64,000 bases of DNA from positions 3,038,001-3,102,000 of the forward strand of contig NZ_CP133671.1 in NCBI RefSeq assembly GCF_031326345.1. Direction: 5' to 3'. Shown here in pieces: positions 50,771 through 64,000 of this stretch. The DNA is from Aureispira sp. CCB-E (GTDB lineage Bacteria; Bacteroidota; Bacteroidia; Chitinophagales; Saprospiraceae). Positions within the stretch are counted from its first letter, which is position 1, and every line of letters begins with the position of its first letter. The position numbers and the translations under genes were made by a program. The notes beneath the pieces were generated by a model. That model was not told the origin of the DNA, made no database searches, and saw only the letters and a program-made list of their open reading frames with translations.

Positions 50771-52193
50771 CCAGCAATTCTAACGATGTAAGAAAATATA
50801 TTAAATAATAATAATATCAAATAGCTATTCTAATTGAGGTCGAATATTGACCTTTCTAGCGATTATTTGATAGATTAAGTTCATTGAAATAGTAGGAATA
50901 AAATCAAAGAGTACTCGAACTTTCTGCCTTAAATTACGCAATGTTTTTGCTTCTTTTAAGGCTTGTTCAAAACTTTCATCAACAGCCCTTGTAATCTGGT
51001 CAACAAAAAATGCTAATAGCATAATCAAAGCAAATACTGTTGACAAGTAGAATTTTCCATGACCATAATTATGTTCCAAATTGTAGTCTTGATTCTTCAA
51101 GGTGTTAAATGTCTCATTTTCAATTTTCCAACCTGCTCTTCCAGCTGTGGCAATAGATGAAACATTTGATTTAGTCAAAGTTAGGTTGGTAATCCACTTA
51201 TTGGAATAAACCACTTTATCTTTTTCTAAATCATATTCTTCGTATTCTAAATAGTTTACGATAATATCTTGGTTTGCGCCATTTAGAATGAGGTTAGATG
51301 CCCACCTGTATCGACACAGAGTCTTTTCATTTTTCTGGTATTGACACTGATGCAAACTATCCTTTTTTCTAAGTTGCTTAACTTGTTCCAAAACATATCC
51401 TTCCTTGATTACTATGATGTAATCCATTTGGATATCTTGTGCTTGAAGTGCTTTAATAGTTGGACCATCAGCATATAAAGCATCTAAAAGAATTAAGATC
51501 TTTTCTTTTGGCAGTATGCTGCGTAAATGTGGAAATAATCGTTTACATGCCTTTCGTTCACAATCATTCTTTTTTGAACCATCCTGCCGCGTTATTGCTT
51601 CTCCAAAAACAGGAAAAACGGTCTTGAAATTAGGATGAACTACACTCGCTGCTAACAATTGGTGATGATGTTCTATTGTACCATTTTTTCTTTTCTTTGT
51701 TAAACATTGAGAACAACCAATCTTATTGGAAGAAAATGTACCTGTGGCATCAACACTTACTAGCAAATGTTGGTCTAAGTATCTTCTACTTTCGAGTATT
51801 TTGAGCCTTTCCAAATGTTCAAAGATTGTTTTAAAAGTAGGTTGAAAAACAGATGGTTGGACAGCATCTAAAATTTTTCGCATCCCATTATCTGTTGGAA
51901 GCTTACTAATTTTAAAGACTTGTTCTAAATTGTCCTTACGATGAATGGCATTATCTATAAAACTCAATAATGATGGATCTTTTAGACCAAACATAGCAAA
52001 TGCTCCCATTAAACAATCATGTAGCAAATATTCTGTATGTCCTTTTCGATGGTCTGGAACTTGGTGAAACTCTTTGGATACTATTTCTACTAATTTGTCG
52101 TACATCGTTTACTTTTTAGTAAATGTACGTTCCTTTTTCAATGAACTTAAATCTTATTTTATCATATAATTCTGTTTATCGTTAGAATTGCTG
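50771..52193 (-). mobile_element. Complete insertion sequence (~1.42 kb)
   Basis: The ends CAGCAATTCTAACGAT (50772-50787) and ATCGTTAGAATTGCTG (52178-52193) are perfect 16-bp inverted repeats. They are flanked by AATTAG on both sides (50765-50770 and 52194-52199), a probable 6-bp target duplication. The left end carries one extra C, so the exact outer base is uncertain by one. The transposase ORF fills it. It looks intact and recent. Family: DDE superfamily with IS4-like features. Confidence 0.85.
50825..52105 (-). CDS. DDE transposase of the insertion sequence
   Basis: The 426-residue product carries the DDE triad layout: VSVDATGTFSS (first Asp near 118), ILLDALYADGP (second Asp near 208) and GWKIENETFNTLKNQDYNLEHNYGHG (Glu near 328) near the C-terminus. 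The N-terminus has a helical DNA-binding-like segment, and the total length suits an IS4-superfamily enzyme. The ORF is uninterrupted, so the element could be active. ISNCY or IS1380 relationships cannot be excluded without a search. Confidence 0.85.
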   Translation of the reverse strand: MYDKLVEIVSKEFHQVPDHRKGHTEYLLHDCLMGAFAMFGLKDPSLLSFIDNAIHRKDNLEQVFKISKLPTDNGMRKILDAVQPSVFQPTFKTIFEHLERLKILESRRYLDQHLLVSVDATGTFSSNKIGCSQCLTKKRKNGTIEHHHQLLAASVVHPNFKTVFPVFGEAITRQDGSKKNDCERKACKRLFPHLRSILPKEKILILLDALYADGPTIKALQAQDIQMDYIIVIKEGYVLEQVKQLRKKDSLHQCQYQKNEKTLCRYRWASNLILNGANQDIIVNYLEYEEYDLEKDKVVYSNKWITNLTLTKSNVSSIATAGRAGWKIENETFNTLKNQDYNLEHNYGHGKFYLSTVFALIMLLAFFVDQITRAVDESFEQALKEAKTLRNLRQKVRVLFDFIPTISMNLIYQIIARKVNIRPQLE

Positions 52194-52353: not shown

Positions 52354-54846
52354 ATGAAACGACTACTCAAATTGAATACTACCTCAGTGTTACTATTATG
52401 TTTATTATTTAGTATTAGTTTAAAATCGCAAACTTATGATGTGAAACCTCCTAAGTGGAAAAGTTTGGATCAAATATCCAAATCTTTGAAAACTACACAG
52501 CTTGAGCTAAAAGAATCCGTTTATTTACCCTCTGGAAGAATTAAAAAAATTTCCTCTATTTCTGTTCTAAGTGTTACTTCTAATGTAATTACAGCTATCA
52601 TGTGTTCTGATGATTCAAAATGGTTTAAAGTAGAAATAGAAATAGGTGACACGGAAGAAATTAATAGATTTGAGATACTGAGAGAGGGAATTTTAGTTGA
52701 TAAATTAAATAATGAGATAGGTGGAGTAGAAGGAACAGCTATCTACGATGGATATTTTTATGTTTCCTTAGATAATGATATAAAAAACAAACAGCAAAAC
52801 TATATATTCAAATATGACTTGGATGACTTGGATAAAATAAAAAGCAGTTGGAAGTTTGAAGAGAAAATTAAGCTAGTAGATGAAAAATATTTCCCTACCG
52901 CAGATGCTTATAAGAATGCTGGGTTAGAAGCTCTGGCAGTAACAGATGATGGAAAATTATTTACAATTTATGAAAAAGGAAGTACTAACAAGAGATTAGC
53001 TTGGCTGAAAAATATTTATCAAAGAGAACAGGCTACTATAGAGTTGAAGTATATGGCTCAATATCCTGAGATAAAGGGAGCTGCAACATTATCGAATGGG
53101 AATATTGTTATTCTTGAAAAAGAATTTGATAAGTACGTAAAAAAGAATAAGGAAGTAAAAAAGACTCGGTTTAGTATTCATGAACTTGATCGAAAAACCT
53201 TAAATAAGGATACATATTTAATTACCAAGAAGTTATTGGAAACAAAATTCAGTCAAGATGATTTTGATAATTTTGAAGGAATTACTTCCTTTGTAATGAA
53301 TGAAAAAGAGTATCTATTAATTATCTCTGATGATAACGGGGATAGTAGTCAAAATACTCTGTTGTTTCTATTTAAACGAATAAATCCTAATGATGGAAAG
53401 ACAAAACCTAAAGTACCTAGAGTAGGAGTTGTAGAACCTGAAAAAGAGAAAGTTGTTGATCCTACATTAATTCCTTATCCTCAATTTAGTGGAAATAGAA
53501 GCTCTTTTAATACTTATGCAGATAAAAAAAATAGGCAAATTATTTATGATACTAAGTTAGGTGCCTCACTAACAAGAATAGATGAGAATGGTAACACCCA
53601 AAAGGCTCATGGAATACCTAGGCATGCAAATGTTTCTGTGGCAATAAGCCCTCTGACTTTAAGAGGTATTCTGAAAGAAGAGGTAAAATACTTTACGGTT
53701 AGTATTGAAGGAAAGGATCATTTATTTAAGAATAGTGTTCAGGATTTATACGAATTAACTTCCCCTCCAAGCGGAGATGTGGGCACCTCTACTGGAGATA
53801 GTCACGAGCCAGAATTGGAAAAATCTGTAGATAAAGCTTTATCTATGCTAGATATTCGAGGTACAGATGATGAGTTAAAAGAAGCACTTGAAGGAGTTGA
53901 AGCTAATTTGCCCCAAGATAAAAAAAGTTCATTTATAAGTGCAAAAGATGCATTTCTTAATGGAGCAAAAAACAGCCTTACAAAAGATAACTTAAGAGAA
54001 GAGCTAAAGAAAATAAAAAACAATGGCTTTGCTCAAGGTACTGTTAGAACTCAAAGCAATTTGGAAAACTATCTTAATAATGTTCTAAGGAGTTGGGATA
54101 AAGGAGATCAATATGTTCAATATTCTGAAATTGAAAGGCTAAAAGCTTATAGAGATACTTTAAGAAAAGCCATTCATGAATGGCAAATATCGGGAAATAG
54201 ATTGTCTTTAAAAGAAACTGAGGCATTTAATAAGGTAATGAATTGGTTACCCCAAGAGATATATCTAACAACCTTCTCGTCAATCGCACCAGATAAGGAT
54301 GAAATAGAAATTAAAATAAAAACCTTTGGGGAAGCGGGTGCAGCAACAAACGAATTTAAAATAGCCAAAAGGAAAGTTAGTACAGGTTTGGCTGTTAATA
54401 TAGGAACTTCTCTTTTCTTGACAGGATTTAGGTCAAGTGATGCTTATCTGAATGATTCTTTTCCGATCAATGATACCGTTATTGAGAGAAGAGTAATGAT
54501 TCCTACCAATGATCAACTTTCTGTAGGAATTGGTGCAAATGCAGAATTATCTTTTAGAACTCCTAGTATTGTTCGTCCAATGATAAGTTTGGGCTTTTTT
54601 GTTCCTTTGAATGAAAAAGTAAAACCCTTGGTTGCTATTGGTGGAGGTGTTACGGTAGGAACTCAAAAGGTAAAGATAAGTGCTTCTTTTGGTGCTGCTT
54701 TTGGAACAATGAATGTAATTAAGGAAGAATATTTGAATAAAAATGTATCTTCTACTATTCAGTTATCAGAAGTAACAGAAACCGTTTGGAATCATAGTTG
54801 GCAAATGGCAATAGGAATAAGTTATAATATTGTCGGAACAAATTAG
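52354..54846 (+). CDS. Secreted phytase-esterase-like protein with beta-rich C-terminus
   Basis: The 830-residue product has a signal peptide (MKRLLKLNTTSVLLLCLLFSISLKSQ). Residues ~95-350 resemble the esterase-like phytase domain: GGVEGTAIYDGYFYVSLDND (about 127-146), NAGLEALAVTDDGKLFTIYE (about 188-207) and DNFEGITSFVMNEKEYLLIISDDN (about 306-329). A Pro/Glu linker and a helical, charged middle follow (about 490-640). A final stretch (about 655-830) has alternating polar/nonpolar strands (GLAVNIGTSLFLTGF, LSVGIGANAELSF, VAIGGGVTVGT, WQMAIGISYNI), as in an outer-membrane barrel. It is likely an enzyme displayed through its own membrane domain; substrate unknown. It follows the IS and ends with a terminator. 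Confidence 0.7.
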   Translation: MKRLLKLNTTSVLLLCLLFSISLKSQTYDVKPPKWKSLDQISKSLKTTQLELKESVYLPSGRIKKISSISVLSVTSNVITAIMCSDDSKWFKVEIEIGDTEEINRFEILREGILVDKLNNEIGGVEGTAIYDGYFYVSLDNDIKNKQQNYIFKYDLDDLDKIKSSWKFEEKIKLVDEKYFPTADAYKNAGLEALAVTDDGKLFTIYEKGSTNKRLAWLKNIYQREQATIELKYMAQYPEIKGAATLSNGNIVILEKEFDKYVKKNKEVKKTRFSIHELDRKTLNKDTYLITKKLLETKFSQDDFDNFEGITSFVMNEKEYLLIISDDNGDSSQNTLLFLFKRINPNDGKTKPKVPRVGVVEPEKEKVVDPTLIPYPQFSGNRSSFNTYADKKNRQIIYDTKLGASLTRIDENGNTQKAHGIPRHANVSVAISPLTLRGILKEEVKYFTVSIEGKDHLFKNSVQDLYELTSPPSGDVGTSTGDSHEPELEKSVDKALSMLDIRGTDDELKEALEGVEANLPQDKKSSFISAKDAFLNGAKNSLTKDNLREELKKIKNNGFAQGTVRTQSNLENYLNNVLRSWDKGDQYVQYSEIERLKAYRDTLRKAIHEWQISGNRLSLKETEAFNKVMNWLPQEIYLTTFSSIAPDKDEIEIKIKTFGEAGAATNEFKIAKRKVSTGLAVNIGTSLFLTGFRSSDAYLNDSFPINDTVIERRVMIPTNDQLSVGIGANAELSFRTPSIVRPMISLGFFVPLNEKVKPLVAIGGGVTVGTQKVKISASFGAAFGTMNVIKEEYLNKNVSSTIQLSEVTETVWNHSWQMAIGISYNIVGTN

Positions 54847-54870
54847 ATACATGGAAGGTAGAATGAGTGA

Positions 54871-54902
54871 TCCCAAAGCTAAATAAAGCTTTGGGATTTT
54901 TT
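54871..54902 (+). terminator. Terminator after the phytase-like gene
   Basis: TCCCAAAGCT pairs with AGCTTTGGGA around AAATAA, followed by TTTTTTAT. Confidence 0.85.
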
Positions 54903-55050
54903 ATGGCACAAACTCATGGAAGTTAATAAGAAAAGCACATTGCCCAATCCCATAATTCTTTACTGAAAAGGATTCTTTTTGTAAATTAAAATACCCATTT
55001 CAAAAACAGAACCCCCAATTTTTTTAAGACAAACATTAATTTTTTTTGTA

Positions 55051-55058
55051 GATTTGAG
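55051..55058 (+). promoter_or_regulatory. Candidate -7 element (TAGATTTG) of the restriction operon
   Basis: TAGATTTG fits TAnnTTTG, about 90 bases upstream of hsdM. The -33 half is not clear within the T-run. Confidence 0.4.
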
Positions 55059-55144
55059 AATTGACCTTGATACTAATTTTTATATCCAGAATTGTCTAGA
55101 AGAAGCATCATAGATAATTCGTTATACAACCAACAAAACAAAGA

Positions 55145-57565
55145 ATGGCAATAAAGAAATCAGAGTTATACAGCTCCCTTTGGGCGAGTTGTGACGAGTT
55201 GCGTGGAGGAATGGATGCCTCACAATACAAAGATTATGTGTTAACCATGTTGTTTGTCAAATACATATCCGATAAATATGCAGGAGATCCCAATAGTTTA
55301 ATAGATGTTCCAGAAGGAGCAACTTTTGAGAATATGGTCGCCTTAAAGGGACAGCCAGACATTGGGGATCGAATCAACAAAGAAATTTTAAATCCATTGT
55401 TTCAGGCCAATGGCTTGGATGGACAGATAGATCCAGTTGATTTTAACGATGATGAAAAGCTAGGAAGTGGCAAAGAAAAAGTAGATAAACTCTCCAAATT
55501 AATTGCCATTTTTGAAAACCCTGCTCTGAATTTCAAAAACAATAGAGCCGAGGACGATGACATATTAGGCGATGCCTACGAATACTTGATGCGCCATTTT
55601 GCTACTGAGTCGGGAAAGAGCAAAGGGCAATTTTATACTCCTTCTGAAGTATCTCGAATACTAGCCAAAGTGATTGACGTACACAAGGCAGATAAATCTT
55701 CCTTTACTGCCTATGATCCAACTTGTGGTTCGGGATCCTTATTGTTAAAAGTAGCCAATGAAGCAGCGGCAGACATTACCCTCTATGGACAAGAAAAAGA
55801 CATTGCTACCAGAGGTTTGTCTATTATGAATATGTGGCTACACGGTCACCCAGAGGCTAGTATTGAGGGGAAAAATACCCTTGCTTATCCACAATTTACT
55901 GAAAAGGATGGAAGCTTGAAACGCTTTGATTTTGTAGTATCCAATCCTCCTTTTTCGATGAAGAACTGGAGTACAGGAATTATACCACTGGACGATGAAT
56001 TCAATCGTTTTCGTGGCTATGGGGTGCCTCCAGAGAAGAATGGCGATTATGCTTTTTTGTTGCACATTCTTGCTTCGATGAAGAGTACAGGAAAGGGAGC
56101 TGTGATTTTGCCACATGGGGTCTTGTTTAGAGGAAATGCGGAAGCTTCGATTCGCCAGAACATCATTGAACGCAGGTGGATCAAGGGAATTATTGGGTTA
56201 CCTGCCAACCTTTTTTATGGAACGGGCATTCCTGCTTGCATTATTGTGCTGGACAAAGAAGGCACGGCAGAGCGTAAGGGCATTTTTATGATCGATGCCT
56301 CTAAAGGCTTTATGAAGGATGGTAATAAAAACCGTTTGAGAGAGCAGGACATTCACAAAATTGTTGATGTATTCAATTCTCAAAAAGAACTGCCGAAATA
56401 CGCTCGTTTTGTTCCCTTTGAAGAGATTAAAAAGAACGAATACAACCTAAATATTCCTCGCTATATTGATACGCAAGAGGAAGAAGATATCCAAGATTTG
56501 AGCGGGCATTTGAATGGTGGTATTCCGAATAGAGATATTGATAACTTACAGGAATATTGGAAGGTTTATCCAAGCTTGAAACAAGACTTACTAGCACCTT
56601 TGAGAGAAGGATATAGCGAATTGAACGTGGATAAGGATGCGATCAAAAGCTGTATTTTTGAACATACTGAATTTAAGGCCTATCGTCAAACGTTGGATGG
56701 CTTGTTTGAGGAATGGAACAATCAAGTAAGTCCTCAATTGAATGCCATTCATGCTCAAACGGCTCCTAAGCAATTGATTCATCAAATCTCGGAAGCCTTA
56801 TTGGAAATCTATGAGGGCAAAGCTTTGGTGAATGCTTATGATATTTACCAGCATTTGCTCAACTATTGGAATGAGACGATGAAGGATGATGTCTATTTGT
56901 TAGTAGAAGATGGTTGGGAAGCCAAGGTGCGTCGAATTATAGAGAAGAACAAAAAAGGGAAGGAAGTAGACAAGGGCTGGACCTGTGATTTGATTCCCAA
57001 AGATTTGATTGTACAGGCTTATTTGCTACAAGAACAACAAGCTTTGCAAAATTTGGAAGCAGATTTGGAAGCGGTACAGGCAGAAATGCGCCAATATGAG
57101 GAGGAGCATACTGGAGAAGGTGGCTTGTTGGAAGAGGCGACGAATGATAAGGGAAAGATTACCAAAACAACCTTAACCAATCAAATGAAGCAGGTCAAAA
57201 ATGACCCTACAGAAAAGGAGGCTTATACCTTGATGCAGGAATTAAAAAAATTGTTTGACCAAGAGACAACCCTTAAAAAAAGCATCAAAACCCAAGTAGC
57301 GGAACTGGATCAAAAAACATTGGAGCAGTATGCTTGCTTGACAGAGGATGAAGTTAAAAAACTAGTTGTCATAGACAAATGGTTGGCTACGATACAGGCA
57401 GCCATTCAGCAGGAGATTGATGCGATTTCTCAGCGTTTGACAACTCGTATTAAAGAATTGGCAGAACGCTATGGAGATACCTTATCGACTTTGAATGCAG
57501 AAACCAAGACTTTGGAAGATAAAGTGGCTATTCATCTTCAAAAAATGGGCTTAGTATGGAATTAA
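55145..57565 (+). CDS. hsdM: Type I restriction-modification N6-adenine methyltransferase subunit
   Basis: The 806-residue product starts with the HsdM N-terminal helical domain (SELYSSLWASCDELRGGMDASQYKDYVLTMLFVKYISDKY). SAM-binding motif I is DPTCGSGSLL at 191-200 and catalytic motif IV is NPPF at 267-270. After ~520 there is a long helical, coiled-coil-rich extension (QALQNLEADLEAVQAEMRQYEEEHT), which makes it longer than a minimal HsdM (~500). It methylates DNA in complex with HsdS and is needed for host protection and for restriction. The last 10 bases overlap hsdS. Confidence 0.95.
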   Translation: MAIKKSELYSSLWASCDELRGGMDASQYKDYVLTMLFVKYISDKYAGDPNSLIDVPEGATFENMVALKGQPDIGDRINKEILNPLFQANGLDGQIDPVDFNDDEKLGSGKEKVDKLSKLIAIFENPALNFKNNRAEDDDILGDAYEYLMRHFATESGKSKGQFYTPSEVSRILAKVIDVHKADKSSFTAYDPTCGSGSLLLKVANEAAADITLYGQEKDIATRGLSIMNMWLHGHPEASIEGKNTLAYPQFTEKDGSLKRFDFVVSNPPFSMKNWSTGIIPLDDEFNRFRGYGVPPEKNGDYAFLLHILASMKSTGKGAVILPHGVLFRGNAEASIRQNIIERRWIKGIIGLPANLFYGTGIPACIIVLDKEGTAERKGIFMIDASKGFMKDGNKNRLREQDIHKIVDVFNSQKELPKYARFVPFEEIKKNEYNLNIPRYIDTQEEEDIQDLSGHLNGGIPNRDIDNLQEYWKVYPSLKQDLLAPLREGYSELNVDKDAIKSCIFEHTEFKAYRQTLDGLFEEWNNQVSPQLNAIHAQTAPKQLIHQISEALLEIYEGKALVNAYDIYQHLLNYWNETMKDDVYLLVEDGWEAKVRRIIEKNKKGKEVDKGWTCDLIPKDLIVQAYLLQEQQALQNLEADLEAVQAEMRQYEEEHTGEGGLLEEATNDKGKITKTTLTNQMKQVKNDPTEKEAYTLMQELKKLFDQETTLKKSIKTQVAELDQKTLEQYACLTEDEVKKLVVIDKWLATIQAAIQQEIDAISQRLTTRIKELAERYGDTLSTLNAETKTLEDKVAIHLQKMGLVWN

Positions 57566-58860
57566 TAGAGACTGAATTTAAACAGACGGAGGTTGGTTTG
57601 ATTCCTGTTGATTGGGAGGTATTTGTTTTGAGTGATGTATTAAATGGGATCGCTGATGTTGATCATTATATGCCTCAATCAAGAAAAGATGGTATCCCTT
57701 ATGTTATGACAGGTAATTTAAAAGAGTTAGCTAGTAATATAAATTTTAATGACTGTAAAAAAATAAGTGCAGACGATTATAAAAGGCTTTCAAAGAAAAT
57801 CAAAAACTTAAAGGGAGATGTAATTTTAGCACGATATGCAACAATTGGTACTGTTTCTTATGTGGATATCGATTTCGATTTTGTGGTTTCGTATTCATGC
57901 GTTACTGTTAAATCAAATCCTTCTAAGTTGCTGGGAATGTTTTTGTTTTATTACTTTAAATCAAGTGTTTTTGAAATAGAAGTTAAAAATAAAGTCAATG
58001 CAAATACACAAAGTAATGTAGGAATTGGAGACTTAAATACAATGAAAATTGCTCTTCCTACTCTTCAAGAACAGGATATTATAGTTAAAGCCCTAAGCGA
58101 TGTAGATGCCCTCATTCATAGTTTAGAAACCTTGATTGCTAAAAAGAAAGCTATCAAACAAGGGGCTATGCAGGAATTGTTGACGGGGAAGACTCGTTTG
58201 GTGGGCTTTGAGAATGATAAGGGTTATCAACAGACGGAGGTTGGTTTGATTCCTGTTGATTGGGAGGTGAGATTAGCTTCAGATATTGCTGAAGTTCGAA
58301 GTGGAAAAAGGTTACCTAAAGGAAATGCTCTTCAAGATACCGAAACTTCTCAACCTTATATTAGGGTAGCCGATATGTTTAATGGAGGAGTAGAACTAAA
58401 AAATATTAAATATGTTCCAGAAAGTGTTAGCCTTCAAATTTCTAATTATAGAATTTATAAAGATGATATTTTTATATCTGTTGCGGGTACATTAGGAATT
58501 TGTGGAATGATTCCATTAATTTTAGATGGAGCAAATTTAACTGAAAATGCTAATCGTTTTACAAATATTCAATGTGATAAAAAATTTCTGTTGTATATCC
58601 TTTTATCTCCTTTGATTCAAAATTTAATTAATTCAAGTAAAACATTGGGAGCGCAGCCTAAATTAGCTTTAGTTAGAATTCGAAATTTTGCTATCCCACT
58701 TCCCCCAACCCTAAAAGAACAAAGAGCCATAGCCGAAACACTCTCCAATATGGATCAAGAAATCCAAACTCTACAAACCAAAAAAGAAAAATACCAAGCC
58801 ATCAAACAAGGCATGATGCAAGAATTGTTAACAGGTAAAACTAGATTAATATCGTCTTAA
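57556..58860 (+). CDS. hsdS: Type I restriction-modification specificity subunit
   Basis: The 434-residue product has two target-recognition domains, each beginning QTEVGLIPVDWEV (about 10-22 and 226-238) and each ending MQELLTGKTRL (about 205-215 and 420-430) after a helical spacer (SLETLIAKKKAIKQGA; TLQTKKEKYQAIKQGM). This is the usual two-half HsdS layout. A 38-bp perfect direct repeat underlies the two TRD starts. The start codon overlaps the hsdM stop, so it is translationally coupled. It sets the bipartite recognition sequence. Confidence 0.93.
   Translation: MELIETEFKQTEVGLIPVDWEVFVLSDVLNGIADVDHYMPQSRKDGIPYVMTGNLKELASNINFNDCKKISADDYKRLSKKIKNLKGDVILARYATIGTVSYVDIDFDFVVSYSCVTVKSNPSKLLGMFLFYYFKSSVFEIEVKNKVNANTQSNVGIGDLNTMKIALPTLQEQDIIVKALSDVDALIHSLETLIAKKKAIKQGAMQELLTGKTRLVGFENDKGYQQTEVGLIPVDWEVRLASDIAEVRSGKRLPKGNALQDTETSQPYIRVADMFNGGVELKNIKYVPESVSLQISNYRIYKDDIFISVAGTLGICGMIPLILDGANLTENANRFTNIQCDKKFLLYILLSPLIQNLINSSKTLGAQPKLALVRIRNFAIPLPPTLKEQRAIAETLSNMDQEIQTLQTKKEKYQAIKQGMMQELLTGKTRLISS
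57583..57620 (+). repeat. 38-bp direct repeat in hsdS, first copy
   Basis: Identical over 38 bases to 58231-58268; both encode QTEVGLIPVDWEV at the start of a recognition domain. Perfect identity at silent positions suggests recent recombination. Confidence 0.85.
58231..58268 (+). repeat. 38-bp direct repeat in hsdS, second copy
   Basis: Second copy, at the start of the second recognition domain; see the first copy. Confidence 0.85.
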
Positions 58861-58862
58861 TA

Positions 58863-59164
58863 GTGATTGATCAGCGAGCCTTAGCGATAGAGTTGGAGGA
58901 TGAAGGAATATCTTTGGCTAGGGAATTTGAGATGCCCATTCATTATAAGAACAAGCATATAGGAACTCGAAGAGTAGATTTTTGGTGGAGGATATGCTTT
59001 CGGTAGAATTAAAAGCAGTCAAACAGATCGAAGATGTTCATATTGCACAAGCCATGAATTATTTGGAGGCTTACAATCTAGAGGTTGGTTTGTTAATCAA
59101 TTTTGGAGCAACGAGCTTGAAGTTCAAACGCTTTGAGAACAAAAAGTATAGAGTGAGGAATTGA
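58863..59164 (+). pseudogene. Decayed GxxExxY-type nuclease-like gene
   Basis: The reading begins directly behind hsdS without the family's usual N-terminus (no GxxExxY). It goes ALAIELEDEGISLAREFEMPIHYKNKHIGTRRVDF and then shifts by one base. The other frame continues VEDMLSVELKAVKQIEDVHIAQAMNYLEAYNLEVGLLINFGATSLKFKRF and ends in TGA. Restoring one G in the TTTTTGGTGG run would join them (DFWVEDML). It contains D...ExK as in PD-(D/E)XK folds (RRVDF, VELKAV). It is missing the first ~25-30 residues, so it is both truncated and frameshifted. Confidence 0.75.
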
Positions 59165-59193
59165 GAATTGTTGAGTTATAAAAGGAGATTGAT

Positions 59194-59405
59194 ATGAGTA
59201 AAACTAACGAAAGTATAAAAAGTGTCGCTTCCTTAAAAGCGTTTCATTTTTTGTAGAAGATTATCAACAAGGCTATAAGTGGGAGATTGTACAAGTACAT
59301 GAATTGTTATCTGATGTTGACGAGTTTGAGAGAGGCTTTGTCGGTTACGGAAAATATAGAGTTTTATAAGTATGAAGTTAGTTTTCGATTGATTAAGGGT
59401 AAATA
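59194..59405 (+). pseudogene. Remnant of a DUF262 gene
   Basis: MSKTNESIKSVASLKAF... reads to a stop at 59257. One frame over, it continues as KSVSFFVEDYQQGYKWEIVQVHELLSDVDEF, which resembles the DUF262 N-terminus (xxxDYQRGYxW...QV..LL.D). The rest of the domain is gone after ~60 residues. It lies directly upstream of two intact DUF262 genes, so it is probably a dead third copy. Confidence 0.65.
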
Positions 59406-59421
59406 AGCTAGAAAATAGTGT

Positions 59422-60885
59422 ATGAGTAGTATAGATGCAAAGATTCGTAAGGTAAAAGATATTTTAGATCAGAACCTTAAAATACCAAATTATCAACGCC
59501 CTTATCGTTGGGAAGAAAAGCATGTTTTTCAACTATTAGAGGATATTTTTAAGAGTTGGAAAGAGGGGAAAACAGCGTATAGAATAGGTAGTCTTATCCT
59601 ACATGAAAAAGAGGGAAAAGATGAAAAAGAGAAAGATTTAGAAATTGTAGATGGTCAACAACGAATCACCACTTTAACTTTAATTTTTTTGTCTTTAGAT
59701 GAGAAGCGTTTTTATAATTATGCAGAGAAATTACATTTTAGTCATGATGATTCTAAATATACGATAAAGCGTAATTTTGTCTTTATAAAGGAGTGGTTGG
59801 GGCACGAAGTTGCTCAAGCGAAGGTAGAATTTCTAAATTATTTGTTAGAGGCTTGTGAATTTGTAGAGGTTAAAGTAAAAAAAACATCAGAGGCCTTTCA
59901 GATGTTTGATTCGCAGAACAGTAGAGGGAAAAGCTTGGAGGCTTATAATTTGTTGAAAGCTTATCATATTAGAGCCATGGAAAGTGAAGCGGAAACACTT
60001 AAAGTAGATTGTGATCGAAGGTGGGAAAGTGCTATAAGATTTTATTCTGGTGAAAAAGAGCCAAAAGATATTCTGAAACAATTATTTGAGGAGCAGTTGT
60101 ACCGAACTCGTCTTTGGAGTCGAAAAGAATATGCTTATCGATTTAGCAAAGAAGTTATAGGAGAGTTTAAAGGCAAGACGATTGAGGATGAGAATAGTGT
60201 AGATTATCCTTATCAAAACACCTATTTGCTTCAACGGCTTATCCTTCAAAATAGTAATCTATTAGGTAGTAAAATGAAAGGAATAAAACCTCGTTTTATG
60301 ACAAGAGAATTGCCAAATGTAAATCCTTTCGTTTCTATTAATCAGCCTATTATTAATGGAAAACTCTTCTTTGATTTTATAGAAAGCTATACAGAAATTT
60401 ATAAACAATTATTTATTTACATAGACGACAAAAGTTGTTTAGGAGAATTTAAGACATTTTATGATAAATATTGTAATTATAAAACCAATCGAGTAGGCGA
60501 TTCTTATTTGAAAGAACTATACAAGTCGCTTGTTATGTTGGTTTTTGATAAATATGGAGAAGAGGGGCTTAATGAATACTACAAGGTTCTTTATACGATT
60601 GTTTACCGTTTGAGAGTAGAGAAGTTTCAAGTAAAATACAATGCTGTTATGAAATATGCAGCAGACAAGTGTTTATTTGTGATTATAGACGAGAGCAAGG
60701 GCTTTGTTGACCTGAGGGCATTGAATGCTTTAACAATGGATACGGTAGTTTGTCGAAGAGATGAAGCACTTATTATTCGATTTTTATGTGAACAAAACGT
60801 GAAAATCAGTAAACATGAAGACCTATCGATAGATGTTATGAAAAAGTACAAAAACTCAATAGATGGAACGAGAAAATCTCAATAA
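59422..60885 (+). CDS. DUF262-domain protein (GmrS-like), without HNH domain
   Basis: The 487-residue product starts with the DUF262 (ParB-like nuclease) core: IPNYQRPYRW (about 22-31), IGSLILHEKEGK, then DGQQRITTL (about 77-85) and FDSQNSRGKSLEAYNLLKAY (about 162-181). The C-terminal half (~200-487) is helical, without the DUF1524 HNH motif of GmrD. In GmrSD enzymes these domains act in NTP-dependent cleavage of modified DNA. The gene overlaps the next gene by 23 bases, so translation is coupled. Together they look like a two-gene defence module inserted in the hsd operon. Confidence 0.85.
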   Translation: MSSIDAKIRKVKDILDQNLKIPNYQRPYRWEEKHVFQLLEDIFKSWKEGKTAYRIGSLILHEKEGKDEKEKDLEIVDGQQRITTLTLIFLSLDEKRFYNYAEKLHFSHDDSKYTIKRNFVFIKEWLGHEVAQAKVEFLNYLLEACEFVEVKVKKTSEAFQMFDSQNSRGKSLEAYNLLKAYHIRAMESEAETLKVDCDRRWESAIRFYSGEKEPKDILKQLFEEQLYRTRLWSRKEYAYRFSKEVIGEFKGKTIEDENSVDYPYQNTYLLQRLILQNSNLLGSKMKGIKPRFMTRELPNVNPFVSINQPIINGKLFFDFIESYTEIYKQLFIYIDDKSCLGEFKTFYDKYCNYKTNRVGDSYLKELYKSLVMLVFDKYGEEGLNEYYKVLYTIVYRLRVEKFQVKYNAVMKYAADKCLFVIIDESKGFVDLRALNALTMDTVVCRRDEALIIRFLCEQNVKISKHEDLSIDVMKKYKNSIDGTRKSQ

Positions 60886-62725
60886 AAGCTTAAAAGAAAT
60901 ATTAGACTACGAGCATAATTATGTGGTACCTCTATACCAACGGAATTATGCTTGGGGAGCAGAGGAAATATTTCAACTAATTCAAGATATTTATGAGCAT
61001 TTTGTAGAATCTCCTACAGAACATTATTTTATAGGAACCTTAGTGGTCTTAAAACGAAAGAATGAGGACTATGAGGTAATAGATGGGCAACAGCGATTGA
61101 CAACGATTTCTATATTGGGAAAATATCTTGATGTAAATCGAATAAAGAAACCTAAATTGAAGTACGATTCGAGGCAAAAAGTAGAGTGTTTTTTTGACAA
61201 GTTTTATAACAACCCCAATAGTGTGAACATACAAGACGATAAATCGATTGCTCATTTTGTTCATGCGGTTGATTATATAAAAAGTACGGTACTCAATCCA
61301 AAGGAAACGAAGCCTATTCGATTAGAATCTTTTAAGGAGCGTGCTAATTATTCGGTTTTTGTAGATTATTTTTTTAATAAAGTCATATTGGTTCGAGTCG
61401 AAATCCCTCAGGATACAGATGTTGCACATTATTTTGAAGTGATGAACAATAGGGGAGAGCAGTTGGTGCCTCATGAAATTTTAAAGGCAAGGTTATTAGA
61501 AAAAATAGAAAATAAAAAACAGGCAGCAATTTTTGCTAAGGTTTGGGAGGCTTGTTCTCAAATGGATAGTTATATACAGAGCTATTTTAATAAAGAGGAT
61601 AAAAATTACTTCTTTGGCGAAAAAAAATATGATGGATTTAATTTTAATCCGTTAGAAGATCAGCAAGGGGAAGTAAATGAGAAGACATTTGTCTCTATTA
61701 ATAGTATATTGAAAGAATATGAATTAAGGGGTGATTCGTCAGATAAAGGAACAAAAAAAGCGAATGGCAAGTATAACTCAATTATAGATTTTCCTAATTT
61801 TTTGATGCATATCTTTAAATTGAAATATAAGGATTACGATGGGCGAGAAGTTCCGCTTAGTGGAGATGAGTTATTACGTGTGTTTGAAGCCTTAGAAGGT
61901 GAAATAGATCCAATGGACTTTATTAAAGATTTGTTTTTTTATAGAGTAGTCTTTGATCGCTTTGTATTGAAAACAGTTGAGGATGAAAAAGTAGAGGATA
62001 ACTATAAATGGGTATTGAGAAAACCAGCGTATTATTTTTATGATACAAAAGAGCAAGATCGATTGGTTTTAAAAAATACATTTGAAAAAAGGGAAGAGCA
62101 AGATGCCATTATTAAGTGTTTGTCTATGCTTCAAGTAACGTTTAGAACCAAGAAATATAAAAAATGGTTACAGGAAGTATTTCAATGGTTTAGAGAGGTT
62201 AAAGATTTAGAAATTAGTGGGGAAGAGTATTTAAAGAAGTTGAATGCTTATGTTTTAGCTGTTTTTTCTGAGAACGAGCGCTTAGTAGATATTTGTACTA
62301 ATAAAACTCCAAATGTTGATTATGCAGAGGGGACAAATACGCCTCATTTTCTTTTTAATTTTATAGATTATTTGTTGTGGATGGATAAGCCTAAGGATTT
62401 TAACTTTGATTTTAAATATCGGAACTCTGTAGAACATCATTTGCCTCAATCTTTAGAGAATGCAGGATTTGTTCATAGTTTAGGGAATTTATGCCTAGTT
62501 AGCAAACGTGCTAATTCTAGGATGGGAAATGAAAATGCTGTTGGTAAAGCTAAAGAAACGAATGGTAAATATTATAAAGAAGATTTGCCGCCTAAGCAAA
62601 AACTAATATACGACAAAACAAATAAAGGAAGTTGTTGGGGAGAAGTAGAAATAAAAGCACATTATGATGAGATTGTAAAAGTGCTTAAAGGTAGAAACAA
62701 AATATTAGAACACCATGAAAGATAA
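60863..62725 (+). CDS. DUF262 + DUF1524 (HNH) protein, GmrSD-like
   Basis: The 620-residue product has an N-terminal DUF262 core: VPLYQRNYAW (about 22-31), EVIDGQQRLTTISIL (about 71-85) and VMNNRGEQLVPHEILKARLLEKI (about 193-215). The C-terminal DUF1524 region has the HNH-type sequence SVEHHLPQS...LGNLCLVSKRANSRMGNENAV (about 524-560), where EHHLPQ carries the catalytic His. This is the nuclease half of GmrSD-like systems. It overlaps the DUF262-only gene (23 bases) and hsdR (11 bases), so all three are probably translated as one unit. Modified-DNA targeting is known for GmrSD but not shown here. Confidence 0.88.
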   Translation: MERENLNKSLKEILDYEHNYVVPLYQRNYAWGAEEIFQLIQDIYEHFVESPTEHYFIGTLVVLKRKNEDYEVIDGQQRLTTISILGKYLDVNRIKKPKLKYDSRQKVECFFDKFYNNPNSVNIQDDKSIAHFVHAVDYIKSTVLNPKETKPIRLESFKERANYSVFVDYFFNKVILVRVEIPQDTDVAHYFEVMNNRGEQLVPHEILKARLLEKIENKKQAAIFAKVWEACSQMDSYIQSYFNKEDKNYFFGEKKYDGFNFNPLEDQQGEVNEKTFVSINSILKEYELRGDSSDKGTKKANGKYNSIIDFPNFLMHIFKLKYKDYDGREVPLSGDELLRVFEALEGEIDPMDFIKDLFFYRVVFDRFVLKTVEDEKVEDNYKWVLRKPAYYFYDTKEQDRLVLKNTFEKREEQDAIIKCLSMLQVTFRTKKYKKWLQEVFQWFREVKDLEISGEEYLKKLNAYVLAVFSENERLVDICTNKTPNVDYAEGTNTPHFLFNFIDYLLWMDKPKDFNFDFKYRNSVEHHLPQSLENAGFVHSLGNLCLVSKRANSRMGNENAVGKAKETNGKYYKEDLPPKQKLIYDKTNKGSCWGEVEIKAHYDEIVKVLKGRNKILEHHER

Positions 62726-64000
62726 TATAGGCAAGACAGAGCGCATTAGTCAAAATCGTATTATTAAGTTGTTTGAAGAGCAACTAGGCTATATCTATTT
62801 AGGAAATTGGGAAAAAGAAGAACGAACTCAGCCAATAGAAGCAACCATTTTGTTGGACTATTTGATTCAACAAGGTTATGCCAAGCTACTAGCAAAAAAA
62901 GCAGTAGATAAATTCGTAAAAGTAGCGACGAACCTATCCAATGGTTTGTACGAAACGAATAAGAAGGTATACCAATTGTTACGTTATGGCGTAACCGTTC
63001 GAGCGGCGCAAGGAGATCCCAAAGAAACCGTTTGGTTGATTAATTGGAAGGACGTTGCAAAAAATCAATTTGCGATTGCTGAAGAAGTCACGGTAAAAGG
63101 ACAACACACCAAACGTCCTGATATAGTCCTTTATGTGAATGGAATTGCTTTGGGTATCTTGGAATTGAAGCGGAGCAAGGTAGGTGTTTCGGAAGGGATT
63201 CGTCAAAACTTAGACAATCAAAAGCCCCAATTTATTCAAAAGTTTTTTACGACAATGCAATTTGTTTTAGCAGGCAATGATAGCCAAGGATTGCGGTATG
63301 GAACGATTGAAACAATAGAGAAGTATTATCTAAAATGGAAAGAAGAGACGGCTCAAGAATTTGAATACCTAATTGATAAACAACTTTGGTTGCTGTGTAG
63401 AAAAGAACGTTTTTTAGAGATTATTCATGATTTTATCGTCTTTGATAAAGGAACAAAAAAAATGTGCCGCCCCAATCAATACTTTGGCATCAAAGCAGCG
63501 CAAGAAAATATTCGTACACGACAAGGAGGGATTCTTTGGCATACACAGGGAAGCGGAAAGAGTTTGACGATGGTTTGGTTGACCAAATGGATTCGAGAAA
63601 ATATACCCGATAGTCGGGTGTTAATCATTACAGATCGAGAGGAGTTGGATGAACAGATTGAGAAGCTGTTTATTGGTGTTGATGAAAAAATCTATCGAAC
63701 CAAAAGTGGACGGGATTTATTAAGGGTGTTGAACAGTAAAGAAGAAATGTTGATGGGGAGTTTGGTGCATAAGTTTGGACGACACGCAGAGCAAGGCGAT
63801 TATAACCAATACATCAAGGAGCTGCAACAATATGCTAGTGCTGATTTTGAAGCCAAGGGAGATATTTATGTATTTGTGGATGAGTGTCACCGTACCCAGT
63901 CGGGGAAGTTACACGATGCTATGAAAGTAATTTTGCCTAATGCCCTTTTTATCGGTTTTACAGGAACACCTTTGCTCAAAAAAGACAAACAAAAGAGTAT
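62715..64000 (+). CDS. hsdR: Type I restriction enzyme R subunit, 3' part beyond window
   Basis: The frame is open from the ATG to the right edge (428 codons). The nuclease domain (PD-(D/E)XK) has RPDIVLYVNGIALGILELKRSK at about 134-153 with D136 and E150-L-K152. The translocase starts with Walker A TQGSGKSLTM (near 277-286). Motif II is DECHRTQ (near 389), in the place of DEAD/DEAH, and motif III is FTGTP (near 415). HsdR cuts DNA after translocation and needs HsdM/HsdS. The start overlaps the upstream gene by 11 bases. About 600 residues are missing. Confidence 0.93.
   Translation, partial: MKDNIGKTERISQNRIIKLFEEQLGYIYLGNWEKEERTQPIEATILLDYLIQQGYAKLLAKKAVDKFVKVATNLSNGLYETNKKVYQLLRYGVTVRAAQGDPKETVWLINWKDVAKNQFAIAEEVTVKGQHTKRPDIVLYVNGIALGILELKRSKVGVSEGIRQNLDNQKPQFIQKFFTTMQFVLAGNDSQGLRYGTIETIEKYYLKWKEETAQEFEYLIDKQLWLLCRKERFLEIIHDFIVFDKGTKKMCRPNQYFGIKAAQENIRTRQGGILWHTQGSGKSLTMVWLTKWIRENIPDSRVLIITDREELDEQIEKLFIGVDEKIYRTKSGRDLLRVLNSKEEMLMGSLVHKFGRHAEQGDYNQYIKELQQYASADFEAKGDIYVFVDECHRTQSGKLHDAMKVILPNALFIGFTGTPLLKKDKQKS

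What the first reader, a model, noticed from the sequence alone, without database searches (positions are those of the whole stretch)
59422..62725. A two-gene DUF262 / DUF262-DUF1524 module lies inside a type I restriction operon
hsdM-hsdS and hsdR are separated by two overlapping DUF262 genes, one lacking and one carrying the HNH end. Overlaps of 10 bp (hsdM/S), 23 bp (DUF262-A/B) and 11 bp (DUF262-B/hsdR) tie the pair to hsdR translation. GmrSD proteins cleave modified DNA (established for the family), while hsdMSR cleaves unmodified DNA; joined in one operon they could cover both kinds of phage DNA. Whether the two DUF262 proteins form a complex is unknown. DUF262-type genes inside hsd loci have been noted elsewhere (for example rlo genes), so novelty may lie in this two-part split.
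Basis: partly seen in the sequence, partly recalled or inferred. Interest (0 to 1): 0.62.

Follow-up and report, generated by a model that had tools for sequence, protein, structure and literature searches.

The report
Two-protein type IV restriction in hsd operon
Two neighbouring genes inside a bacterial DNA-restriction operon look like a known kind of two-protein enzyme that cuts chemically modified phage DNA; the arrangement is already published in Vibrio cholerae, and this is a divergent new example, sitting in a slot that still carries scars of other defence genes.

Summary
hsdM, hsdS, two DUF262 genes (A without, B with the DUF1524/HNH nuclease end), hsdR and a YgjP-like peptidase gene run in one direction, with the stated overlaps.

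A and B form one unit. B is next to A in 79 of 80 named loci (the miss is at a contig end), and their divergence correlates at r = 0.95 over 90 loci. Linkage to hsd is modular: 13 of 80 loci lie inside an hsd operon, and 53 show no hsd gene in the DNA held.

This is the architecture of TgvAB of Vibrio cholerae (Vizzarro et al. 2024): same order hsdM-hsdS-A-B-hsdR, same domain split. TgvAB needs both proteins, restricts phages with hypermodified cytosines, and works without HsdR nuclease activity. Best reading: a divergent TgvAB-type modification-dependent restriction system in a known cargo slot of type I operons. New member of a known kind; low interest, apart from the scarred slot.

The parts
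55145..57565 (+). hsdM, type I DNA methyltransferase subunit (806 aa)
   Evidence: PF02384 E 3e-102, HsdM_N 3e-13; TIGR00497 above cut-off
57556..58860 (+). hsdS, specificity subunit (434 aa), overlaps hsdM by 10 bp
   Evidence: PF01420, two stretches, E 4e-42
58863..59164 (+). remnant of a GxxExxY protein gene, N-terminus missing, split over two frames
   Evidence: TIGR04256 E 4e-16, PF13366 E 5e-14; 66% over 41 aa and 67% over 54 aa, in two frames, to the intact 129-aa gene that alone fills the hsdS-hsdR slot of L258
59217..59348 (+). remnant of another DUF262 N-terminus
   Evidence: A profile E 7e-7; 39% over 44 aa to the slot DUF262 of L199 (E 1e-5), 50% over 30 aa to that of L247 (E 1e-5)
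59326..59397 (+). remnant of the C-terminal tail of a NucS/YhcG-like PDDEXK gene
   Evidence: 62.5% over 24 aa to the C-termini of the slot genes of L220 (E 6e-5) and L250 (E 3e-5); the L220 gene is NucS_C, E 3e-10
59422..60885 (+). A: DUF262-DUF7834 protein (487 aa), TgvA-like partner without nuclease motif
   Evidence: DGQQR in 90 of 90 relatives' A (window's included), nuclease motif in 0 of 90; AlphaFold model mean pLDDT 89.6
60863..62725 (+). B: DUF262-DUF1524 (His-Me/HNH) protein (620 aa), TgvB-like nuclease; overlaps A by 23 bp
   Evidence: DGQQR and EH..GN..NS in 90 of 90 (window's included); model mean pLDDT 87.5
62715..64000 (+). hsdR, type I restriction subunit (1010 aa; ends beyond the window), overlaps B by 11 bp
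   Evidence: HSDR_N 3e-39, SWI2_SNF2 8e-51; full ORF L063:8715-11747

Best explanation
[quoted passage not shown] Inferred mechanism: the DUF262 domains of both proteins bind and hydrolyse NTP and together sense hypermodified (probably sugar-modified) cytosine in entering phage DNA; B's C-terminal His-Me nuclease then cuts. A has no nuclease motif and acts as an obligatory sensing or regulatory partner through its DUF7834 part. HsdMSR independently restricts unmethylated DNA, so the operon would cover both kinds of phage DNA, but the two systems would share expression, not mechanism. Shown here: genes, domains, intact motifs, co-inheritance of A and B, modular linkage to hsd. Inferred from published TgvAB/GrwAB work: need for both proteins, substrate, cleavage. 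Not shown for these sequences in anything I saw: activity, substrate or complex.
For: Domains. DGQQR in 90 of 90 A and 90 of 90 B; EH..GN..NS in 90 of 90 B; no nuclease motif in 90 A. The commonest H-to-N spacing in B is 31 residues (27 of 90), equal to the spacing of the two mutated TgvB residues H571 and N602 (PMC11411939); the window's B has 26. A-B divergence correlates at r = 0.954 over 90 loci; within 12 hsd operons A-B is 0.987 and hsdM-hsdR 0.992, against A-hsdR 0.48 and A-hsdM 0.46. 'Inside hsd' needs 13 changes on the A tree, at least 9 forced by starred branches of a quick tree. TgvAB has the same gene order and split, needs both genes, restricts Tevenvirinae, loses activity with H571A or N602A, and keeps it with HsdR K172A.
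Against: No activity data for this species. The window's A and B were not aligned with the V. cholerae proteins themselves (not fetched). In 9 of 11 other complete operons A is only 25-31% identical to the window's, so the sensed modification may differ. The window's HNH loop is shorter than in most B proteins (26 against 31-32 in 45 of 90). A and hsd are not independent: A-hsdR 0.48 has permutation p 0.003, and within the 8 operons of the same hsd subfamily A-hsdR is 0.79 and A-hsdM 0.88. Remnants in the gap show that this site loses genes, although A and B themselves are open and keep their motifs.
Confidence: 0.85

Rival explanations
1. A and B act as accessory subunits of the type I enzyme, for example modulating HsdR or sensing its inhibition as PrrC does with EcoPrrI.
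For: Position between hsdS and hsdR with an 11-bp B/hsdR overlap; PrrC precedent inside a type IC locus (PMC12707154, passage); significant though weaker A-hsdR correlation (0.48 over 12 operons, 0.79 within the subfamily).
Against: 53 of 80 A-B loci have no hsd homologue in the DNA held; A-hsdR correlation is much weaker than A-B over 12 operons; TgvAB activity does not need HsdR nuclease activity and the pair alone protects, though more weakly.
Confidence: 0.07
2. Two separate single-protein GmrSD-like enzymes that merely lie side by side.
For: Each has its own DUF262 with DGQQR; single-protein GmrSD, BrxU and SspE exist (PMC12409362, passages).
Against: No nuclease motif in 90 of 90 A; A without B next to it in 1 of 80 loci, at a contig end; r = 0.954 for A-B divergence; TgvA and TgvB are inactive alone.
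Confidence: 0.04
3. A decaying insertion: the pair is present but not functional or not expressed in this strain.
For: The 561-bp gap just upstream is full of gene remnants; a terminator-like hairpin lies in it (59226-59241), though such sites are no more frequent in the region than in shuffles.
Against: A, B and hsdR are intact, overlapping and motif-complete.
Confidence: 0.08

Closest known systems
[quoted passage not shown]
   Same: Two adjacent genes, both with N-terminal DUF262, only the second with DUF1524 His-Me nuclease; order hsdM-hsdS-A-B-hsdR in one operon.
   Different: Host is probably a Bacteroidota; sequence is divergent (A and B 24-55% identical to the hsd-embedded relatives compared); shorter HNH loop; slot carries gene remnants; no activity test.
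GrwAB (V. cholerae WASA lineage)
   Same: Two-gene DUF262 system with one His-Me nuclease subunit, both needed.
   Different: GrwA (nuclease) comes first and GrwB has an extended multi-domain C-terminus; here the nuclease is second and A is a 487-aa DUF262-DUF7834 protein.
GmrSD / Eco94GmrSD / BrxU / SspE single-protein enzymes
   Same: DUF262 NTPase plus DUF1524 nuclease in B. The A model matches SspE 7drr_A (Z 15.6, rmsd 17.6, 388 aligned), the DndI entry 9jfl_B (Z 14.5, rmsd 7.0, 358 aligned) and BrxU 7p9m_A (Z 6.2, rmsd 16.7, 309 aligned); the B model matches SspE, DndI and BrxU by Foldseek.
   Different: Here a second DUF262 protein without nuclease motif accompanies B.
RloF and other genes between hsdS and hsdR (RloF in C. 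jejuni, DarTG2 with RptR in EPEC)
   Same: Same site; a slot for defence cargo, called a potential recombination hotspot in PMC12255303.
   Different: Different cargo; RloF is one DUF262 protein.

Membership tests
TgvAB-type two-protein GmrSD-like system | two adjacent genes, each with an N-terminal DUF262 holding DGQQR | tested here: met
TgvAB-type two-protein GmrSD-like system | C-terminal DUF1524 His-Me nuclease in the second protein only | tested here: met
   motif in 90 of 90 B and 0 of 90 A
TgvAB-type two-protein GmrSD-like system | placed between hsdS and hsdR of a type I operon | tested here: met
   not a strict criterion, since the paper reports 1,341 hits for tgvAB homologues against 79 for the five-gene operon
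TgvAB-type two-protein GmrSD-like system | direct sequence homology to VC1767 and VC1766 | not tested
   V. cholerae sequences were not fetched; the five-gene order was seen in named relatives such as Acinetobacter sp. Ver3 (L139), a genus the paper lists for it
TgvAB-type two-protein GmrSD-like system | both proteins needed; restriction of phages with hypermodified cytosine | not testable with these tools
   published for TgvAB
GmrSD type IV restriction enzymes | DUF262 + DUF1524 in one chain or a pair | tested here: met
   B
GmrSD type IV restriction enzymes | NTP-stimulated cleavage of modified-cytosine DNA | not testable with these tools
   no assay
GrwAB | nuclease gene first, partner with extended multi-domain C-terminus | tested here: not met
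   nuclease gene is second; A is 487 aa with DUF262 + DUF7834
Type I restriction-modification | complete hsdM, hsdS, hsdR | tested here: met
PADLOC HEC-06 / SspE / Orf5 models | match over the whole model | tested here: inconclusive
   both proteins match several of these models (best: A 102 bits, B 110 bits to HEC-06), but the best-scoring stretch shown lies in the N-terminal DUF262 part

The most novel reading that the evidence does not exclude
The hsdS-hsdR junction of this type I subfamily is a serial-replacement dock for anti-phage cargo. Different modules (GxxExxY, PDDEXK nuclease, single DUF262 proteins, an unnamed ~600+~820-aa DUF262 pair, TgvAB-like pairs) are swapped in, perhaps by recombination in the conserved hsd genes, and each swap can leave a scar, so that the scar record in one genome lists the slot's earlier occupants.
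Probability: 0.55. Interest if true: 0.4.

Novelty: new member of a known kind. Interest (0 to 1): 0.22.

Why it matters
[quoted passage not shown] The scarred gap gives a concrete record of turnover at a slot that others have called a potential recombination hotspot, so the swapping can be counted across genomes.

Tried and rejected
Rejected: that A/B are bound to hsdR in function (modular linkage; TgvAB data). Rejected: GrwAB membership (order and partner differ). Rejected as evidence: gene overlaps as special coupling, since 65 of 79 A-B pairs in the named loci overlap when the first start codon is taken. Promoter- and terminator-like sites in 54800-63000 are about as many as in shuffles (33 against 30.0; 5 against 3.8), so operon structure rests on gene order only.

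Led nowhere: a genome-contig scan with A alone found nothing (the alignment query then worked); no A relative in phage records. Foldseek found SspE and DndI chains for the A model but TM-scores are low (0.18-0.41) and the rmsds of the long alignments large, so I rely on this only for the DUF262 part; the C-terminal part of A was not folded alone. The ~600+~820-aa DUF262 pair in L199, L247 and L257 was checked as a GrwAB candidate: no EHxxP motif in the six proteins, so not called GrwAB. The fold search 'viral' library was not used. Supplementary tables of PMC11411939 could not be read, so whether their 79 five-gene hits already include Bacteroidota is unknown to me. No complex prediction was offered.

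B is called by profile: A or B is broken in L099, L117, L121 and L160. 100 loci went into; 90 entered the tree after dropping 3 duplicates, 1 without B and 6 with short A or B ORFs. The tree is a 'quick' one with SH-aLRT only and warns of five long rows, three of them 'inside' (L065, L067, L072). Of 50 hsdR-subfamily loci read (window, G151, G142, 35, 12), 35 show hsdS and hsdR; the other 15 were dropped from the slot tally, and further hits were not fetched. The slot tally was made by eye; a weak B match in L204 (27 bits) was not counted as DUF262.
Full report
What is there. hsdR is intact beyond the window (1010 aa) and is followed by a gene that overlaps it by 11 bp and is YgjP-like metallopeptidase. 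A has DUF262 and DUF7834; B has DUF262 and DUF1524. These are the only two DUF262 matches in the 7.39-Mb genome. A relative of the same family (handle G897, contig C108, 7682 bases) looks like the Saprospiraceae record JAHDGD010000176.1 (same length, same genes and scores), so the host is probably in or near Saprospiraceae (inference).

Strain variability. A genome of the same species (G880, completeness 99) has no close copy of this hsdR (only a match of 34% identity at E up to 1e-100; the window's own genome has such a second hsdR too). Window 48612-50771 matches G880 at 99%; an insertion sequence (50772-52193, 100% copy elsewhere in G880) follows; beyond it up to 55140 only a 31-base repeat matches. 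Downstream of the hsd genes only short repeats match. The DNA that G880 has at that point finds only 64-68% relatives and short repeats in the window's genome. The locus therefore looks strain-variable.

The pair is one unit. An alignment-based scan of the species-genome collection kept 80 named loci encoding A. B is next to A on the same strand in 79; in the other (L147) the contig ends. Over 90 loci with full-length A and B, DGQQR is present in 90 A and 90 B, EH..GN..NS in 90 B, and the nuclease motif in no A. Pairwise divergence of A and B correlates at r = 0.954 (Mantel, 999 permutations, p = 0.001).

The link with hsd is real but modular. Of the 80 loci, 11 lie between hsdS or hsdM and hsdR (at most five genes to either side), 2 more have hsdR next to B at a contig edge, 14 have hsd genes elsewhere in the held DNA (up to about 10 kb each side), and 53 have none (some contigs are short). 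For scale, in 390 phylum genomes 170 held a match to this HsdR at E up to 1e-30, so, taking 3-4 Mb a genome, a chance rate per 22 kb would be below about 1%; this is a rough estimate, as at most two candidates a genome were scored and the profiles are broader. Some of the excess is the general clustering of defence genes. On a tree of 90 A proteins the 'inside' state (19 rows) needs 13 changes, at least 9 forced by starred branches, against a shuffled mean of 17.6 (0 of 500 as low): clustered, but gained or lost many times. The tree is a quick one and three 'inside' rows are long, so 9 is not firm. In 12 complete operons A-B correlates at 0.987 and hsdM-hsdR at 0.992, but A-hsdR at 0.48 (p 0.003) and A-hsdM at 0.46 (p 0.004). 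L065 shares 60% (hsdM) and 61% (hsdR) identity with the window but only 25% and 24% in A and B, while L072 shares 43% and 42% in A and B but 26% and 27% in hsdM and hsdR. Against this: within the 8 operons of the same hsd subfamily A-hsdR reaches 0.79 and A-hsdM 0.88, so some co-descent exists there.

The slot. I read 50 loci of this HsdR subfamily (window, G151, G142, and those), and 35 show both hsdS and hsdR. Counted by eye: 4 hold an A-B pair (window, L065, L067, L248); 6 hold other DUF262 genes (L199, L219, L247, L251, L257, and weakly L253); 5 have no ORF of 90 aa or more between hsdS and hsdR (L195, L197, L211, L218, L256); the other 20 hold varied genes. Tested with Pfam among these: KilA-N (L198), NucS/YhcG-like PDDEXK (L194, L220), DUF4268 (L192), a Schlafen AlbA_2 protein (L202), an AAA ATPase (L216), HepT-like (L201), an IS200-like transposase (L208); several had no Pfam match. 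By similarity to the window's remnants only: a PDDEXK gene in L250 and a GxxExxY gene in L258.

The scars. The last two are short and their E-values moderate, and the searched ORFs came only from loci chosen for A or hsdR; yet the best match of all three is a gene in the same slot of a relative. I read this as the remains of at least three earlier or co-resident occupants. How they were exchanged is not shown.

How it most likely works. The architecture equals that of TgvAB of V. cholerae: VC1769 hsdM, VC1768 hsdS, VC1767 tgvA, VC1766 tgvB, VC1765 hsdR; both proteins with DUF262, TgvB also with DUF1524 (PMC11411939, outline, abstract and passages; PMC12409362, passages). There the pair protects E. 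coli against Tevenvirinae, neither gene protects alone, TgvB H571A or N602A abolishes activity, and HsdR K172A does not. T2 escape mutants had lost cytosine glucosylation (reported in PMC12409362 from Gomez and Waters, whose paper I did not read). In 27 of the 90 B proteins the spacing from the conserved H to the conserved N is 31 residues, as between H571 and N602; it is 26 in the window. The AlphaFold models (mean pLDDT 89.6 and 87.5) match SspE, the DndI entry and BrxU, with large rmsds over the long alignments. From this I infer an NTP-driven sensor made of two DUF262 proteins with B as the nuclease; substrate and complex are untested here.

Novelty. Nothing in the arrangement is new in kind. 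GmrSD homologues were already known to be enriched beside type I genes, with RloF between hsdS and hsdR (PMC4619093, passages); TgvAB and GrwAB are two-protein systems; [quoted passage not shown] None of my five literature searches asked for scars in this slot by name, so I make no claim that such scars are unpublished. Verdict: new member of a known kind, interest 0.22.

Noticed in passing
58861-59421: Gap between hsdS and A holds remnants of a GxxExxY gene, a DUF262 N-terminus and a PDDEXK C-terminal tail; each best matches an intact gene in the same hsdS-hsdR slot of a relative.
   Followed up: yes
L199:3039-7416, L247:7355-11617, L257:3036-7329: A different two-gene DUF262 pair (about 600 + about 820-850 aa, no EHxxP motif in either) in the same slot; members are 24-43% identical to each other. 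May be an untested two-protein system with another nuclease.
   Followed up: partly
L229 (G000:C1:1536000-1551000): A second type I locus in the same genome (its HsdR 34% identical) with two extra ORFs of 459 and 457 aa between hsdM and hsdS.
   Followed up: no
50772-52193: Insertion sequence with a 426-aa transposase; 100% copy elsewhere in the conspecific genome. It marks the point where the match to that genome stops.
   Followed up: partly
plasmid records, e.g. NZ_CP067373.1 (L080): A relatives are widespread on Klebsiella plasmids: 853 of 906 plasmid records with a match are Klebsiella, and 758 of the 906 are predicted conjugative; in the one Klebsiella record opened, type I genes lie just upstream.
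   Followed up: no
L078 (NZ_CP016482.1): Cyanobacterial plasmid copy with B in pieces, an IS1-family transposase gene between them.
   Followed up: no
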